From the IMG/VR virus record IMGVR_UViG_3300027865_000008, positions 1 to 63,789 of that record: 63,789 bases of DNA; one strand, given 5' to 3'. The notes below the pieces were generated by a model. The model made no database searches. It was not told the origin of the DNA and worked only from the letters and a program-made list of their open reading frames with translations. A program made the translations under genes and the position numbers. Origin of the DNA: a virus. Shown here piece after piece: positions 1,181 through 61,771 of the stretch. Within the stretch, counting starts at the first letter, position 1. Every line of letters starts with the position of its first letter.

Positions 1181-1256
1181 CCGGAAGAAGTCTTGCGGGC
1201 TAAGGTGTGTAAGTTTGAGCACCTTGCATGTCTTCTCGCAAGACTCATGGCTTCGG
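1181..1256 (+). promoter_or_regulatory. Structured 5' leader hairpin of the pyrE-like gene
   Basis: Three nested inverted repeats form one long hairpin: CCGGAAG (1181-1187) with CTTCGG (1251-1256, one bulge), AGTCTTGCG (1189-1197) with CGCAAGACT (1237-1245, perfect), and AAGGTG (1202-1207) with CACCTT (1220-1225). The outer 3' arm runs into the GGAG at 1255-1258 that serves the ATG at 1266. The fold could therefore hide the ribosome site. No U-run follows, so it is not an intrinsic terminator. Known pyr leaders use other structures; I do not recognise this one. Confidence 0.6.
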
Positions 1257-1265
1257 AGAAATAAT

Positions 1266-1850
1266 ATGGGTATCAAAAATCTTAAAAGACTGTTAACACA
1301 ACTTATTTTAAAGAGAAGTTTTAAGTATAGCGAAAAGCCCTTATTTACATTGGCTTCTGGGGAAAAAAGTCCTTATTATATCGATTGTAAACCAATTACT
1401 CTTTGCCCAGAGGGACGCTTAATTATAGGGGAAATAGCTTTTTTAATGCTAAGGGCGCTTGATTTCAAGGGGGTTGGAGGCTTAACCTTGGGTGCTGATC
1501 CTATTGCTATTACTATAAGTGATTTTTTCCTTAAAAACAGTAGATTGATTCATAGCCTCGTTGTCAGAAAAGAACCAAAGAAGCATGGTACAAATAAATG
1601 GATTGAGGGGAACTTTTACGATCAAATGCCCGTAATTATTGTAGAAGATGTCCTTACAACCGGGGGCTCAACAATAAAGGCCATAAATCGTGCTCGTGAA
1701 TGTGGCTTGGAAGTAAAACATGTTCTAGTTATCGTTGATCGTGAAGAGGGTGGCAGGCAAATAGTTAAACAGGAACTGAATGTTTCTGTAAGAAGTATGT
1801 TATACAAAAGTGAAATATCAGAAGTTTTTTGGAGAGAACAACAAAAATGA
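1266..1850 (+). CDS. pyrE: Orotate phosphoribosyltransferase
   Basis: The family makes orotidine-5'-phosphate from orotate and PRPP, a step of pyrimidine synthesis in the cytoplasm. The 194-residue product is close to the usual length. It shows FTLASGEKSPYYIDCK near the N-terminus, the catalytic loop VRKEPKKHGT (about 101-110) and the PRPP-binding motif IIVEDVLTTGGST (about 123-135), followed by VDREEGG. All key parts appear intact. I start it at the ATG at 1266 because GGAG lies 7 bases upstream; an in-frame TTG at 1215 falls inside the leader hairpin. It sits between head and tail genes, where Mu-type phages carry no metabolic gene, so it looks like an inserted cargo gene. Its stop directly abuts the permuted tRNA. 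Confidence 0.88.
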   Translation: MGIKNLKRLLTQLILKRSFKYSEKPLFTLASGEKSPYYIDCKPITLCPEGRLIIGEIAFLMLRALDFKGVGGLTLGADPIAITISDFFLKNSRLIHSLVVRKEPKKHGTNKWIEGNFYDQMPVIIVEDVLTTGGSTIKAINRARECGLEVKHVLVIVDREEGGRQIVKQELNVSVRSMLYKSEISEVFWREQQK

Positions 1851-1851
1851 A

Positions 1852-1932
1852 GCGGGGGGTCGGGAGTTCAAATCTTCTCATGCAGTTTTTAACTGGGTGT
1901 AGCTCAGTCTGGTTAGAGCGCCCGCTTAGGAT
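1852..1932 (+). tRNA. Circularly permuted tRNA gene (3' half before 5' half), anticodon AGG
   Basis: The 3' half comes first: anticodon-stem GCGGG (1852-1856), variable GGGTC, T-stem GGGAG, T-loop TTCAAAT (1867-1873), CTTCT and acceptor CATGCAG (1879-1885). A 7-base linker TTTTTAA follows. Then comes the 5' half: acceptor CTGGGTG (1893-1899), TA, D-stem GCTC, D-loop with GG, GAGC, G26, anticodon-stem CCCGC (1921-1925) and loop TTAGGAT (1926-1932). The halves match: the anticodon stem pairs 5/5 and the acceptor 6/7 with one G-G mismatch. T8, A14, G15, G18, G19, C48, C56 and A58 equivalents are all present. The loop would read AGG (proline CCU). No CCA is encoded. Whether it is processed is unknown. 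Confidence 0.75.
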
Positions 1933-6240: not shown

Positions 6241-8688
6241 ATGAGCGTTGCTAAAGTAGCGATACAGTTTACAGCGATTGACCTCTTAAGCAGAGGGGTC
6301 GATACGATGAAAAAACGTATGGATTCTTTCAAGGATGCTGGGGTAGATGCCCAGCGTTCTTTCAATAGAATGACTACAGCAATTAAACTTGCTAGTGTTT
6401 CGGGAATTTTAACAAAGTCTATTTATAACAGTATAAAACCGGCTATAAGTGTAGCTGGTGACTTACAAGCGGAATTATTAGGTGTTAACGCACTGTTAGC
6501 CGGTATGGGAGATAAAGTTGGAAGTGTCGTTAATAAATTTTCTGCAACTGCATTTGACATTCAAGCCTGGACTCCTTTTGACATAACGCAAATTGTAGCA
6601 CTCGAAAGACAATTAACGAAATCTGGTGCGAGTATCGATGCCGTTCTCAGTAAAACGGGTGTTACTGCTGCTGCTTCTGCTCTAGCCATTCAAGAAGGTC
6701 TTGATCCAGTTACAGCCGGAAAAAGCCTCATAAGACTTGCCACACCTTTCAGCCTTGCAGCCGATCAATATGCACATGTAGCCGATATGATTTCCCGTGC
6801 TGCCGATGTTTCTCCTGTTGGTGCAGCAGAAATTGTTGAAACAGCAAAGTATGCTGCTTTGCCTCTTGCCGCACTTGGTAGAACTGTAGATGAAGTTGTC
6901 ACTCTTTCTGCCGTACTCGCTAAAAGTGGAATTGATGCAAGTATGGCCGGTACAGGTTTAAGACAATTTTTCTCTCAGGCAGCAAAAGTTGACGCTTTCA
7001 AAGATGCAAATGGAGATTTAATAGAAACTTCTGAAATCATAGAAAAATTGAGAACTGGTTTTGAAGGTGTCGGTAAAGCTGATCTTATGGAACGTCTTAT
7101 AAGAGGTTTTGGATTGAGAGGGATGCCGATAGCTCTTGCTCTTATGAAAAAGGGTGAGGCAGGATTTAAGGGTACCATTGATGCCATGAAGCGGGTAAAT
7201 CCGTTGCAAGAAAAAATGGCCACTCGGATGCGTGGTTTCATTGCCCAACTTAATTCATTGAAAGGTACATCTAAGTCCCTTATTGCTCAATTATATCAAC
7301 CTGCATTGGAACCGCTTACGTTTTTACTAAAAGGTACAAATGACTTATTGACAAGTTTCGGAAGACTTGCACAAGAAAAACCATCAATCGCGGAATTTGT
7401 TTCAAAATTTTCTCTCGGAACTCTCTTTACAGGTGGTGCGGCTACAGCTGGTTTAGGGCTAGCGGCTCTCTTCTTCGGTAAAAAAGCCATAAAGGGTATG
7501 GGAGGATTTAAGGGAGTTTTCAAAGGTCTTACTTCCACTTTAGTCGGTGTCGTAAAAGGAAAAGCTCTCGAAGCAGCGGCGGGTATAAAACCAGTTTTCG
7601 TTACCAATTGGCCAGTGGACAGAGGTATTAATGCTGCTGCGGCTGGATTAAATGAAAAACTTAAAGGTATTAAAAAAGGTGCTGAGGACGGTTTTGGTAG
7701 TTTAACTGCTGCCGGAGGCGGAGCTGCTGCTGCCGGAGGTACAGGTTTGTTTGCTTGGCTCGGTACTAAGATCGGATCTTTTCTTCCGAAAGCTTTTCTT
7801 ACAAAATTAGCTGGTATGGGTAAAATCGGCGGTGCTTTAGCTGCTCTACTGGGTACAGCTGGGACAATGACCACCCTTGGTGTTGCTGGTGCAGGTCTTG
7901 GGACCGGTGTCCTGCTTGGAAAACTGATAGATCAAAATGATTTTATTAGCGATAAACTTGATAAGACGGTTGATCTCCTTTATGACATTTCTCCAGATTT
8001 CGGTATTTCGGATTATTTTGCAGACATTCCAGATTTAGTTGAGGCAACAAAACGAAGCGATAGAATGTCTCGGGTTGAAAAACCTTTGGCCGTTATCCGT
8101 CCCATTTCTACAGAAATTATAAAAAATACAATTCTCGAAAAAATTTTGACTAAAAATAATACTGAAAAATTTCTCAATGAAAGAACTGAAAATAATACTG
8201 AAAAATTTCTCAACGAAAGAACTGAAAATAATACTGAAAAATTTCTCAATGAAAGAACTGAAAATAATACTGAAAAATTTCTCAACGAAAGAACTGAAAA
8301 TAATACTGAAAAATTTCTCAACGAAAAAACCGAAAATAACATCGAGAGATTTTCCAAAGAAAAAACCGAAAATAACATTGAAAGGATTCTTCAAAATAGG
8401 GTTGAAAACAACGTATCTGAAAGAGTCTTTAGGGAAAAAACTTCGCATAATATATCTGAAAAAATCCTTCGTGAGAAGCATACTACCGAAAAAGCAGAGC
8501 GGATATTGCGAACGGAAAAAACAATCGGGAAAAGTCAGGAGAGAGGTGAAATGACAGCCATTCCTACTTTTAAGAACGATATAAACCTTAATGTAAGAAT
8601 TGATGAACGGAATAGAGTAATAACTGATTCGTCTGATAATACACGGATAAAAACGACATTAGATAGAGGCGGTTTTAGCTCTTTATAG
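6241..8688 (+). CDS. Tail tape measure protein
   Basis: 815 residues. The N-terminal half matches the TP901-type tape measure core: VGAAEIVETAKYAALPLAALGRT, LSAVLAKSGIDASMAGTGLRQFF, and the GLRGMPIALAL segment. Two glycine/alanine-rich hydrophobic stretches (about 395-420 and 540-565) could cross the host membrane. From about residue 639 a 12-residue repeat (NNTEKFLNERTE) runs five times and then decays over five more copies. Tape measure length sets tail length, so repeat gain or loss would change it. The gene begins 2 bases after the chaperone stop. Confidence 0.85.
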   Translation: MSVAKVAIQFTAIDLLSRGVDTMKKRMDSFKDAGVDAQRSFNRMTTAIKLASVSGILTKSIYNSIKPAISVAGDLQAELLGVNALLAGMGDKVGSVVNKFSATAFDIQAWTPFDITQIVALERQLTKSGASIDAVLSKTGVTAAASALAIQEGLDPVTAGKSLIRLATPFSLAADQYAHVADMISRAADVSPVGAAEIVETAKYAALPLAALGRTVDEVVTLSAVLAKSGIDASMAGTGLRQFFSQAAKVDAFKDANGDLIETSEIIEKLRTGFEGVGKADLMERLIRGFGLRGMPIALALMKKGEAGFKGTIDAMKRVNPLQEKMATRMRGFIAQLNSLKGTSKSLIAQLYQPALEPLTFLLKGTNDLLTSFGRLAQEKPSIAEFVSKFSLGTLFTGGAATAGLGLAALFFGKKAIKGMGGFKGVFKGLTSTLVGVVKGKALEAAAGIKPVFVTNWPVDRGINAAAAGLNEKLKGIKKGAEDGFGSLTAAGGGAAAAGGTGLFAWLGTKIGSFLPKAFLTKLAGMGKIGGALAALLGTAGTMTTLGVAGAGLGTGVLLGKLIDQNDFISDKLDKTVDLLYDISPDFGISDYFADIPDLVEATKRSDRMSRVEKPLAVIRPISTEIIKNTILEKILTKNNTEKFLNERTENNTEKFLNERTENNTEKFLNERTENNTEKFLNERTENNTEKFLNEKTENNIERFSKEKTENNIERILQNRVENNVSERVFREKTSHNISEKILREKHTTEKAERILRTEKTIGKSQERGEMTAIPTFKNDINLNVRIDERNRVITDSSDNTRIKTTLDRGGFSSL
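8155..8334 (+). repeat. Tandem 36-base repeat inside the tape measure gene
   Basis: Five near-identical 36-base units encode NNTEKFLNERTE. The asparagine codon before GAA alternates AAT, AAC, AAT, AAC, AAC. This suggests one 72-base unit was duplicated recently. Degenerate copies continue to about 8520. The unit length is a multiple of three, so expansion keeps the frame. Confidence 0.9.
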
Positions 8689-59140: not shown

Positions 59141-61771
59141 ATGCAGTATACGATAAGTAAACCTCCCAGCAGAATTCGAAAACTCCCCAAACCGGCAAAG
59201 AAAATTTGGATTGAGGCATTTAATTCTATTTTTAAGTCTACTGGAGATTCGAAAAAAGCAATCCATGCAGGTTGGAAAGCTGTTCGGGATGTTGGGTATA
59301 CGGTAAGTAGTGGTGGTAAGTGGGAGAAAACCACAACAGATGATATTCAGCTTTTTGAATTGGCTGCTGCTAAAAAAGAAGATAAAAAAGTAATCGCGGA
59401 AGCGGATGAATTAAGTTTATATCAAAAGAGAAATTTAATCGAGCAAGCCGTTGAGGAAAGGTTCGGACAGTATTCTTGGTCAGTAGAAACTTATGATACG
59501 TATGTCGTAGTAAAAGTTAATACTAATTCCTATTCATGGGATGAGAATAGTTCTCTATTGAAGGTTGATTATACTTTCGCGGACGATTTCAAATCTGTAA
59601 CTCTCGCAACCAATACAACACCTGTTGAGAAAAAAACAGAATACGTTGAAGTGGCGGAAGCGACTTTGCCCGTTAAATTTATAGAGGCAAAAGGTAAGAA
59701 AGGCAGTTGTTATAAAGTTAGATTGATCGCTGCCGGTCTATCATTAAATAATTACAATTATCCGTCAGATGTTTTGAAAGCTGCTGTGCCTCTTTTTGAG
59801 GGTGTCAGAGCGATTGCGCGAAGTGATGAGGATCATGTCAACGATTTAAATACGAATGTAAACAATATCGTCGGTTGGTATGAGAATCCACGTTTCGAAG
59901 ATGATTCTATCGTTGCTGATTTTATGGTTTCAGCGGCGGCTACAAATCTAAAAGTTATGATGAAGGATGCTTGGGATCGTGGTAAACCGGATCTTGTTCA
60001 ACTTAGTATAGTTGCATTGGGTACAGGAGTGATCGTTAAGGGCGATGATGGTTCAGAAATTGTAAATGTCGAATCTCTGGTTTCCGTAAAATCAGTAGAT
60101 ACAATTGTTAATGCGGCTGCGGGTGGTGAGCTTATTGAATTAAGAGCAGCTCATATTCCAGTCACAAACATGGAGGAAAACGAACACATGTTATTAGAAA
60201 AAATTTTGAAATTTCTGGAAGCAAAATTTCCAGAACACTTCAAAAGAATTAAGGATCAAAAAAATGTAGAGGAAGTTACTCAGATTTTCAACGAAGCTAC
60301 AGCAAAAATACCGGAGGTTAGTTTGGATACACCTCCCTCTCCGTCTCCTGCTGCCATAGTTCCAGTTGCGGAAGCCTCAACAGAAGGACAAAGCCTTGCA
60401 GCTGAGACACGGGTTGAATTGACGAAGCTGAGGGAAAGTATTGCCGCTGAACGAAAGGATCTAAAAAAACATGGTTGTGCTTTGATGCTGACAGAGTCAA
60501 TCGCGGCCTCTACACTTCCAGAGCCGATGTTGAGTGCGATTAGAACCCGTTTTGATGGGAAAATTTTTGAAAGAGCGGAATTAGATGCTGAATTTGCTTC
60601 AAATAAAAAGGTTTTGGCACAAATGTCAGAGTCTGGGAATATTACAGGTTTCGGTGAAAATCGTATGGAAATCGGGAAAGAAGAACGTGATAAAGTTCTT
60701 AAAGCTTTTGAAGGGTTTTTTCTCGAAGAGGATGTGGATGAAGTTCCCCGATATGAATCTTTCCGTGAAGCATATAAAGACATTACAGGTGATGTAAAGT
60801 TTACGGGGCAACTCAGGGAGGCCAAAAATCTTCATAAGTTCACTGAGTCAATGACAACTGATAGTTGGACACAGCTGTTGGGAGACTCGATAACGCGAAA
60901 AATGTTGAGAGAGTATAACACTCCTGGATTTGACGATTGGAAAAAAATCGTTTCCGATATCGTTCCTATCAGTGATTTTCGTGATAATAAACGTATGAGA
61001 ATGGGTGGTTATGGCCTTTTGCCGTCTGTTGGGCAAACTGGAACATATAATCCGCTTACAAGTCCTACGGATGAAGAGGCAAATTATGCCATTTCGAAAA
61101 GAGGTGGCTTGGAAGATATTACCTTGGAAATGATAGCAAATGACGATGTTGGAGCTATCAGGCGTGTTCCTAAAAAATTGGGGCGTGCGGCTGCTATCAC
61201 CTTGTACCGTTATATCTTTGATTTTATTCTGAATAACGCTACAACGACATATGATTCTGACGCACTTTTTCATTCCAACCATGGTAATCTTGGTTCAGTG
61301 GCTCTTTCCGCTGTCAGCTTGTTGGCTGCCAAGGTAGCAATGGCAGATCAAGCAGCTTATGGTGCTGCAACAGATATATTAGGGTTAGTACCTAGATATC
61401 TGTGTATTCCGTCTGAGCTTGAGGATGTTGCTCTCAGGCTTACTACCTCTCCCAATGCTATAGCCAATCAAACTCCTCCACTGCGTCAGGGTGATGGTGA
61501 ACCCAATATCCATGCAACATATGGTTTAAAACCGTTAGTAGTTCCTTATTGGACAGATGCTAATAATTGGACATTGGTCTGTAACCCAAAAGATTGTCCT
61601 ACTATCGAAGTGGGTTTTTTCCAGGGCAGGCAGCAACCGGAGCTTTTTGTTCAGGATCAACCAAACGTGGGCAGTATGTTTACTGCTGATAAAATTACCT
61701 ACAAGATCCGTCATATTTATGGTGCCGTTCCTGTAGAACATAGAGGAATGTATAAGGCTGTTGTAGCTTAA
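59141..61771 (+). CDS. Fused ChaB-like / prohead protease / scaffold / major capsid protein (Mu gpT-like)
   Basis: 876 residues. The first 50 (IRKLPKPAKKIWIEAFNSIFKSTGDSKKAIHAGWKAVRDVGY) are ChaB-like. About 170-345 is a prohead protease: DEDH with His 232 and VQLSIVALG with Ser 289 as candidate catalytic residues. About 350-540 is a helical scaffold. About 560-876 is the Mu gpT-like capsid (WTQLLGDSITRKMLREY, TDEEANYAISKRGGLEDITLEMI, EHRGMYKAVV). These are separate genes in Mu. An internal ATG at 60188 (codon 350) has GGAGG 11 bases upstream, so a scaffold-capsid form may also be made. Confidence 0.85.
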   Translation: MQYTISKPPSRIRKLPKPAKKIWIEAFNSIFKSTGDSKKAIHAGWKAVRDVGYTVSSGGKWEKTTTDDIQLFELAAAKKEDKKVIAEADELSLYQKRNLIEQAVEERFGQYSWSVETYDTYVVVKVNTNSYSWDENSSLLKVDYTFADDFKSVTLATNTTPVEKKTEYVEVAEATLPVKFIEAKGKKGSCYKVRLIAAGLSLNNYNYPSDVLKAAVPLFEGVRAIARSDEDHVNDLNTNVNNIVGWYENPRFEDDSIVADFMVSAAATNLKVMMKDAWDRGKPDLVQLSIVALGTGVIVKGDDGSEIVNVESLVSVKSVDTIVNAAAGGELIELRAAHIPVTNMEENEHMLLEKILKFLEAKFPEHFKRIKDQKNVEEVTQIFNEATAKIPEVSLDTPPSPSPAAIVPVAEASTEGQSLAAETRVELTKLRESIAAERKDLKKHGCALMLTESIAASTLPEPMLSAIRTRFDGKIFERAELDAEFASNKKVLAQMSESGNITGFGENRMEIGKEERDKVLKAFEGFFLEEDVDEVPRYESFREAYKDITGDVKFTGQLREAKNLHKFTESMTTDSWTQLLGDSITRKMLREYNTPGFDDWKKIVSDIVPISDFRDNKRMRMGGYGLLPSVGQTGTYNPLTSPTDEEANYAISKRGGLEDITLEMIANDDVGAIRRVPKKLGRAAAITLYRYIFDFILNNATTTYDSDALFHSNHGNLGSVALSAVSLLAAKVAMADQAAYGAATDILGLVPRYLCIPSELEDVALRLTTSPNAIANQTPPLRQGDGEPNIHATYGLKPLVVPYWTDANNWTLVCNPKDCPTIEVGFFQGRQQPELFVQDQPNVGSMFTADKITYKIRHIYGAVPVEHRGMYKAVVA

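What the first reader, a model, noticed from the sequence alone, without database searches (positions are those of the whole stretch)
1852..1932. Circularly permuted tRNA gene between pyrE and tail genes
Seen: a tRNA 3' half (GCGGG, GGGTC, T-arm, CATGCAG) precedes its 5' half (CTGGGTG, D-arm, CCCGC, TTAGGAT), linked by TTTTTAA. Anticodon stem pairs 5/5, acceptor 6/7. All key tertiary positions are present. Known: permuted tRNA genes are described in red and green algae and some archaea; I know of none worked out in a phage, but I cannot search. Inference: the acceptor forms a closed hairpin and the ends lie at the anticodon loop, so a functional tRNA would need circularisation or ligation, RNase P and CCA addition. 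Alternatively it acts as a tRNA mimic or an integration relic. Its loop overlaps the ribosome site of the next gene.
Basis: partly seen in the sequence, partly recalled or inferred. Interest (0 to 1): 0.88.

Follow-up and report, generated by a model that had tools for sequence, protein, structure and literature searches.

The report
Phage RNA imitating an inside-out tRNA
Between two virion genes of a phage lies a short RNA element whose tRNA halves are in reversed order; a related phage keeps the same fold at the same place with different sequence, so it is a real conserved tRNA look-alike of the kind seen in bacterial Y RNAs, but probably not a working tRNA.

Summary
At window 1850-1927 a tRNA 3' half precedes its 5' half. 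Put back in normal order it is called a complete tRNA-Pro(AGG) by ARAGORN and matches phage tRNA-Pro genes end to end at 74-77% identity.

A working permuted tRNA gene is not supported. The termini pair beyond the anticodon stem (7 bp); A73, CCA and a BHB motif are missing; no RtcB was found in the apparently complete genome.

A related phage contig (L001) has a homologous RNA in the same gap between the MuF-like and tail genes. The AAGCGGG/CCCGCTT stem, TTCRA T-loop and GG D-loop are kept, the hairpins are re-paired with different sequence, and de-permuted it is no tRNA. A decoding role is thus very unlikely there, and simple decay of a tandem tRNA-Pro pair is unlikely.

The architecture is that of bacterial Y RNAs (YrlA), including Ro60-linked phage Y RNAs recovered as controls. 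But no Ro60 gene was found, the YrlA score is at tRNA background, and the element sits inside a late operon. I read it as a tRNA-derived, Ro60-less, YrlA-shaped mimic, most likely acting within the late mRNA. The mechanism is inferred, from two sequences only.

The parts
1850..1856 (+). 5' strand of closing stem, AAGCGGG (overlaps the last base of the OPRT stop codon)
   Evidence: pairs with 1921-1927 in the MFE fold; identical in L001
1862..1878 (+). T-arm GGGAG-TTCAAAT-CTTCT
   Evidence: tRNA consensus; T-loop TTCRA kept in L001
1879..1899 (+). closed acceptor-like hairpin CATGCAGTT-TTT-AACTGGGTG
   Evidence: MFE fold; different but fully paired hairpin at the same place in L001
1902..1919 (+). 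D-arm GCTC-AGTCTGGTTA-GAGC, with GG in the loop
   Evidence: tRNA consensus; D-arm with GG loop and different stem in L001
1921..1927 (+). 3' strand of closing stem, CCCGCTT
   Evidence: pairs with 1850-1856; identical in L001
1928..1931 (+). AGGA, probable Shine-Dalgarno of the tail-region gene; predicted mostly unpaired
1266..1850 (+). OPRT-like (pyrE-like) gene upstream; absent from L001
   Evidence: absent between MuF-like and tail genes in L001
1939..2493 (+). tail-region gene downstream of the element
   Evidence: 65% identical homologue at the same place in L001; next downstream genes include the tail sheath

Best explanation
A tRNA-derived RNA element with circularly permuted (YrlA-type) architecture. 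A closing stem carries a T-arm, a closed acceptor-like hairpin and a D-arm, so the transcript can display a tRNA elbow without tRNA ends or an anticodon loop. It probably arose from two adjacent tRNA-Pro copies that lost their outer halves, and has since been kept as a structure in a phage lineage (window and L001). It is probably not a decoding tRNA. Inferred mechanism: the element nearly fills the intergenic gap, with no promoter-like site near its start and no terminator after it, so it most likely acts as part of the polycistronic late mRNA, as a docking site for host enzymes that bind the tRNA elbow (for example RNase P, tRNA-modifying enzymes or PNPase-type nucleases), which process, protect or punctuate the message just before the tail gene's ribosome site. 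A free Y-like RNA cut out of the same transcript is the second choice. Shown: permuted halves, tRNA-Pro resemblance, shared structure in a second phage, no Ro60 or RtcB match in this genome. Inferred: origin from tandem copies, cis action, and which enzyme binds.
For: De-permuted it is a full tRNA-Pro cloverleaf and aligns end to end with phage tRNA-Pro. L001 holds the same plan in the same gap, with identical closing-stem core, TTCRA and GG kept, hairpin and D-stem re-paired with other bases and a 9-bp closing stem; 1 of 20,000 shuffles of that gap scores as high. De-permuted L001 is no tRNA for ARAGORN. A Ro60-linked phage Y RNA in L086 (1306-1412) folds to the same plan. No promoter-like site just upstream and no + strand terminator after it. 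Truncated tandem tRNA-Pro copies exist in a known phage.
Against: Only two sequences support conservation. The descriptor was written after seeing them. Fold z-scores are modest, -2.2 and -2.3. If both halves come from tRNA-Pro copies, pairing within the window element is expected without selection, so the case rests on L001. The T-stem of L001 is weak (3 bp). Closer relatives such as L123 do without the element. There are no RNA data, and the promoter scan covers only sigma-70-type sites.
Confidence: 0.55

Rival explanations
1. A true Y RNA (YrlA) that works with a Ro60/Rsr protein supplied by the host: the stem binds Ro60 and the tRNA-like module binds PNPase or gates Ro60.
For: Same permuted plan as YrlA; weak full-length YrlA match of 21.2 bits, E 0.09; Ro60-linked phage Y RNAs include one with the same plan.
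Against: 21 bits is what tRNA pairs also reach (19.2 bits; 18-24 bits), against 34-41 for the main Ro60-linked controls. No Ro60 in an apparently complete phage genome. The long two-part basal stem and flanking motifs of the controls are missing. No room for a transcription unit of its own.
Confidence: 0.2
2. A decaying remnant of a tandem tRNA-Pro pair without present function.
For: Both halves resemble tRNA-Pro; truncated tandem tRNA-Pro exists elsewhere; the element is missing in L123 and others.
Against: In L001 the stems have changed sequence yet pair fully, with the loops and closing-stem core kept.
Confidence: 0.15
3. A working circularly permuted tRNA-Pro gene, joined at the anticodon loop and processed by RNase P, RNase Z and CCA addition.
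For: The de-permuted cloverleaf is complete, with C1-G72, U33 and a Pro anticodon; gap-free match to a phage tRNA-Pro with loop TTTGGAT. Junctions at 37/38 with 9-31 bp intervening sequences exist in C. merolae (PMC3978253).
Against: No BHB motif, no A73 or CCA, termini paired past the anticodon stem, no RtcB found in the phage, homologue not a tRNA. The GG of the 'anticodon' is already explained by the Shine-Dalgarno.
Confidence: 0.05
4. A translational control element: the structure governs access to the tail gene's ribosome site.
For: The ribosome site lies directly after the stem; a second short helix flanks it. In L001 a GGGA upstream of the start codon is predicted paired.
Against: In the window the AGGA is predicted mostly unpaired (0.82-0.96), and in L001 the GGGA is 14 nt from the ATG, so the two phages do not agree.
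Confidence: 0.2

Closest known systems
Bacterial Y RNA, YrlA (Rfam RF02553; structure PDB 6CU1)
   Same: Ends form a stem that carries a T-arm, closed acceptor-like arm and D-arm, i.e. a circularly permuted tRNA-like module (PMC11472068, PMC8394870).
   Different: No Ro60 gene found in the phage, no long basal stem with the motifs of the phage controls, YrlA score at tRNA background, placed inside a virion operon.
Ro60-linked Y RNAs of phages (L012, L018, L045, L086; reported for mycobacteriophages)
   Same: Phage-borne, same order of arms; L086 1306-1412 has the same plan without an anticodon arm.
   Different: They lie on contigs with a TROVE/Ro60 gene, in L086 in an array, with conserved flanks; the window element stands alone.
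Circularly permuted tRNA genes of red and green algae and archaea
   Same: 3' half before 5' half, short intervening sequence, junction in the anticodon region.
   Different: No BHB motif at the junction; termini paired by 7-9 bp; no 3'-end determinants; homologue is not a tRNA.
Phage tRNA-Pro genes
   Same: De-permuted sequence aligns over all 74 nt at 74-77% identity.
   Different: Gene order inverted, no A73 or CCA, stem closes where the anticodon loop should be.

Membership tests
YrlA / bacterial Y RNA | Permuted tRNA-like module (T-arm, closed acceptor arm, D-arm) on a stem formed by the ends | tested here: met
YrlA / bacterial Y RNA | Score above Rfam gathering threshold (69 bits), or at least clearly above tRNA background | tested here: not met
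   21.2 bits; tandem tRNAs 18-24 bits and Ro60-linked controls 34-41 bits, themselves below 69
YrlA / bacterial Y RNA | Ro60/Rsr (TROVE) gene in the same genome | tested here: not met
   no match in the phage; host unknown, so a host Ro60 cannot be excluded
YrlA / bacterial Y RNA | Basal Ro60-binding stem with conserved internal loop and motifs | tested here: inconclusive
   only 7 bp plus a weak A/T-rich 5-bp helix; motifs of the phage controls absent
YrlA / bacterial Y RNA | Binding to Ro60 and PNPase | not testable with these tools
   needs biochemistry
Circularly permuted tRNA gene | 3' half precedes 5' half; de-permuted sequence is a full tRNA | tested here: met
   window only; not met for homologue L001
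[quoted passage not shown]
   termini form a continuous 7-bp (window) or 9-bp (L001) stem followed by an internal loop; motif definition from PMC3978253
Circularly permuted tRNA gene | Circular intermediate and mature aminoacylated tRNA | not testable with these tools
   needs RNA data

The most novel reading that the evidence does not exclude
A Ro60-independent lineage of permuted tRNA mimics that works in cis in phage late mRNA, as a tRNA-elbow docking, processing or punctuation signal between head and tail genes, born from a tandem tRNA-Pro pair.
Probability: 0.35. Interest if true: 0.65.

Novelty: new variant of a known kind. Interest (0 to 1): 0.5.

Why it matters
YrlA-type RNAs show that a permuted tRNA can be a useful mimic, but the examples I could identify are tied to Ro60. 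A copy in a virion operon without Ro60, still close enough to tRNA-Pro to show its ancestry, would capture how such mimics can arise (loss of the outer halves of tandem tRNAs) and suggest a second use, as a handle for tRNA enzymes on an mRNA. It allows direct tests: RNase P cleavage, TruB/Dus modification and reporter effects on the next gene.

Tried and rejected
Protein query of the OPRT in viral contigs: no relative confirmed. Pattern AGCGGG...GTTCRA...CCCGCT: mostly ordinary tRNAs read on the other strand, no new relative. General T-arm to D-arm pattern: mostly tandem tRNAs, but it gave the Ro60-linked control Y RNAs. Scan with the sheath profile: 80 relatives, only L001 (again, as L276) has the element. 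MuF profile scan: nothing usable, and it missed even L001, so it is uninformative. Known ribozymes or other Rfam families in 16 related loci: none. RtcB and tyrosine integrase in the phage: none. Matches in permuted order among known phages (L360-L364): ordinary tandem tRNAs, one with a truncated tRNA-Pro copy.

Considered and rejected: an assembly artefact (an independent contig, L001, has the homologue) and an attP relic (no tyrosine integrase found; order and structure do not fit). No covariance model was built, since two sequences would add nothing.

Full report
WHAT IS THERE. The window is a virus record of 63,789 bases. Its two ends continue one gene in frame if one base of overlap is removed, so the genome is very probably a complete circle, although the record itself is classed only as a virus record. 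The element lies at 1850-1927, between an OPRT-like gene (ends 1850) and a small tail-region gene (starts 1939). Reading 5' to 3' there is AAGCGGG, GGGTC, a T-arm with loop TTCAAAT, CATGCAG, TTTTTAA, CTGGGTG, TA, a D-arm, G, CCCGCTT. ARAGORN, and Rfam at gathering score, find nothing in the window as it stands. When the halves are swapped back ARAGORN reports a full tRNA-Pro(AGG). The swapped sequence aligns over its whole length with phage tRNA-Pro genes at 74-77% identity. Among about 1,500 viral tRNAs at hand the two best are tRNA-Pro, one matching without a gap through the anticodon loop; averaged by isotype, Pro and Val tie.

WHY IT IS PROBABLY NOT A WORKING tRNA GENE. The ends of the element pair for seven, not five, base pairs. 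The acceptor strands close as a 9-bp hairpin with one mismatch over a UUU loop. Position 73 is U and no CCA follows. There is no bulge-helix-bulge, the mark of permuted tRNA genes in algae and archaea (PMC3978253), and no RtcB was found in the phage. The 'anticodon' AGG is part of the Shine-Dalgarno AGGA of the next gene.

THE HOMOLOGUE. Protein searches brought one close relative, contig L001 (tail gene 65%, sheath 80%, MuF-like protein 66% identical). It has no OPRT gene here, but in the 132-nt gap between the MuF-like gene and the tail gene it holds AAAAGCGGG-AATATATA-GGTTCGATTCC-...-TTTACGAATTTATGATTTGTAAA-CCCATTGGGATGGG-CA-CCCGCTTTT. The closing-stem core is identical, the T-loop TTCRA and a D-loop GG are kept at matching places, and the hairpin and D-stem have quite different bases yet pair fully, while the T-stem is reduced to 3 bp. 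A structural descriptor ranked L001 top among the 152 loci (1.34 Mb) first scanned, and 1 of 20,000 shuffles of that gap reached its score; the same was true of the window element. The descriptor was written after seeing both sequences, so these figures are guides, not clean P values. De-permuted, L001 is no tRNA for ARAGORN. In the next relatives the element is absent: L123 (tail gene 62% identical) has the MuF-like gene abutting the tail gene, and in L138, L141 and L142 the preceding open frame also runs up to the tail gene.

CONTROLS FOR THE Y RNA COMPARISON. A pattern scan for a T-arm followed by a D-arm found mostly tandem tRNAs, but also four phage contigs (L012, L018, L045, L086) that carry a TROVE/Ro60 gene and RNAs of which the best score 34-41 bits with Rfam's YrlA model. 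In L086 several such RNAs stand in a row; one, 1306-1412, has the plan of the window element. Y RNA is circularly permuted relative to tRNA (PMC11472068), has a stem formed by its ends and a tRNA-like domain modified by DusA and TruB (PMC8394870), and is reported from mycobacteriophages (PMC12282133). So the permuted layout in phages is not new. The window element scores only 21 bits, which pairs of ordinary tRNAs also reach; it lacks the long basal stem and flanking motifs of the controls, and no Ro60 was found in the genome. I therefore say that it is built like YrlA, not that it is YrlA.

ORIGIN AND MECHANISM. Both halves look like tRNA-Pro, so the likeliest origin is two adjacent tRNA-Pro copies that lost their outer halves; a truncated tandem tRNA-Pro pair in Escherichia phage BYEP02 shows that such arrays occur. 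That origin would also explain the pairing in the window by itself, so the argument for selection rests on L001. The element fills the gap. No + strand terminator-like site follows it, and the only promoter-like match in the window stretch lies about 470 nt upstream, inside the OPRT gene, in a region with fewer matches than shuffles give. I infer that it works inside the late mRNA as a tRNA elbow presented on a stem. The ribosome site lies in a predicted internal loop just outside the stem in the window, and a possible one is paired in L001, so control of the tail gene is possible but not shown to be common to both. Which enzyme binds is unknown; RNase P cutting in the hairpin loop is a testable guess.

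LIMITS. Two sequences, no RNA data, unknown host, no metagenome scan. Confidence that it is a conserved tRNA-like structure: about 0.8. Confidence in the cis mechanism: about 0.35-0.4.

Noticed in passing
window 1188-1245: Long imperfect hairpin just upstream of the OPRT gene (fold z-score -2.8 over 1156-1268); no Rfam family fits. Absent from L001, which also lacks the OPRT gene.
   Followed up: partly
L086 330-1412 and L275: Phage contig with an array of at least four YrlA-like RNAs with varied tRNA-like modules, some with an anticodon-arm-like hairpin, next to a TROVE/Ro60 frame; flanks share GCGTGG...TTACTTC...TTGTTCCCGC. The Ro60 frame may be interrupted by another ORF (by eye only; Pfam did not confirm the N-terminal part).
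   Followed up: partly
L012, L018, L045: Further phage contigs with TROVE/Ro60 genes and Y RNAs that carry an anticodon-arm-like hairpin.
   Followed up: partly
L363 (Escherichia phage BYEP02, about 92.3 kb): A tRNA-Pro copy lacking its acceptor 3' strand directly precedes an intact tRNA-Pro: a natural step towards a permuted order.
   Followed up: no
window 1 and 63789: The two ends continue one gene in frame with a 1-base overlap, so the record is probably a complete circular map.
   Followed up: yes
window 1266-1850: OPRT-like gene whose best phage matches are in Prochlorococcus phages (about 40% identity), sitting in the head-tail operon.
   Followed up: partly
window 6241-8688: Tape-measure-like protein with a run of near-identical repeats (NNTEKFLNERTE) near its C-terminus.
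   Followed up: no
window 59141-61771: Capsid protein with an N-terminal ChaB domain fused to the head protease/capsid part.
   Followed up: no
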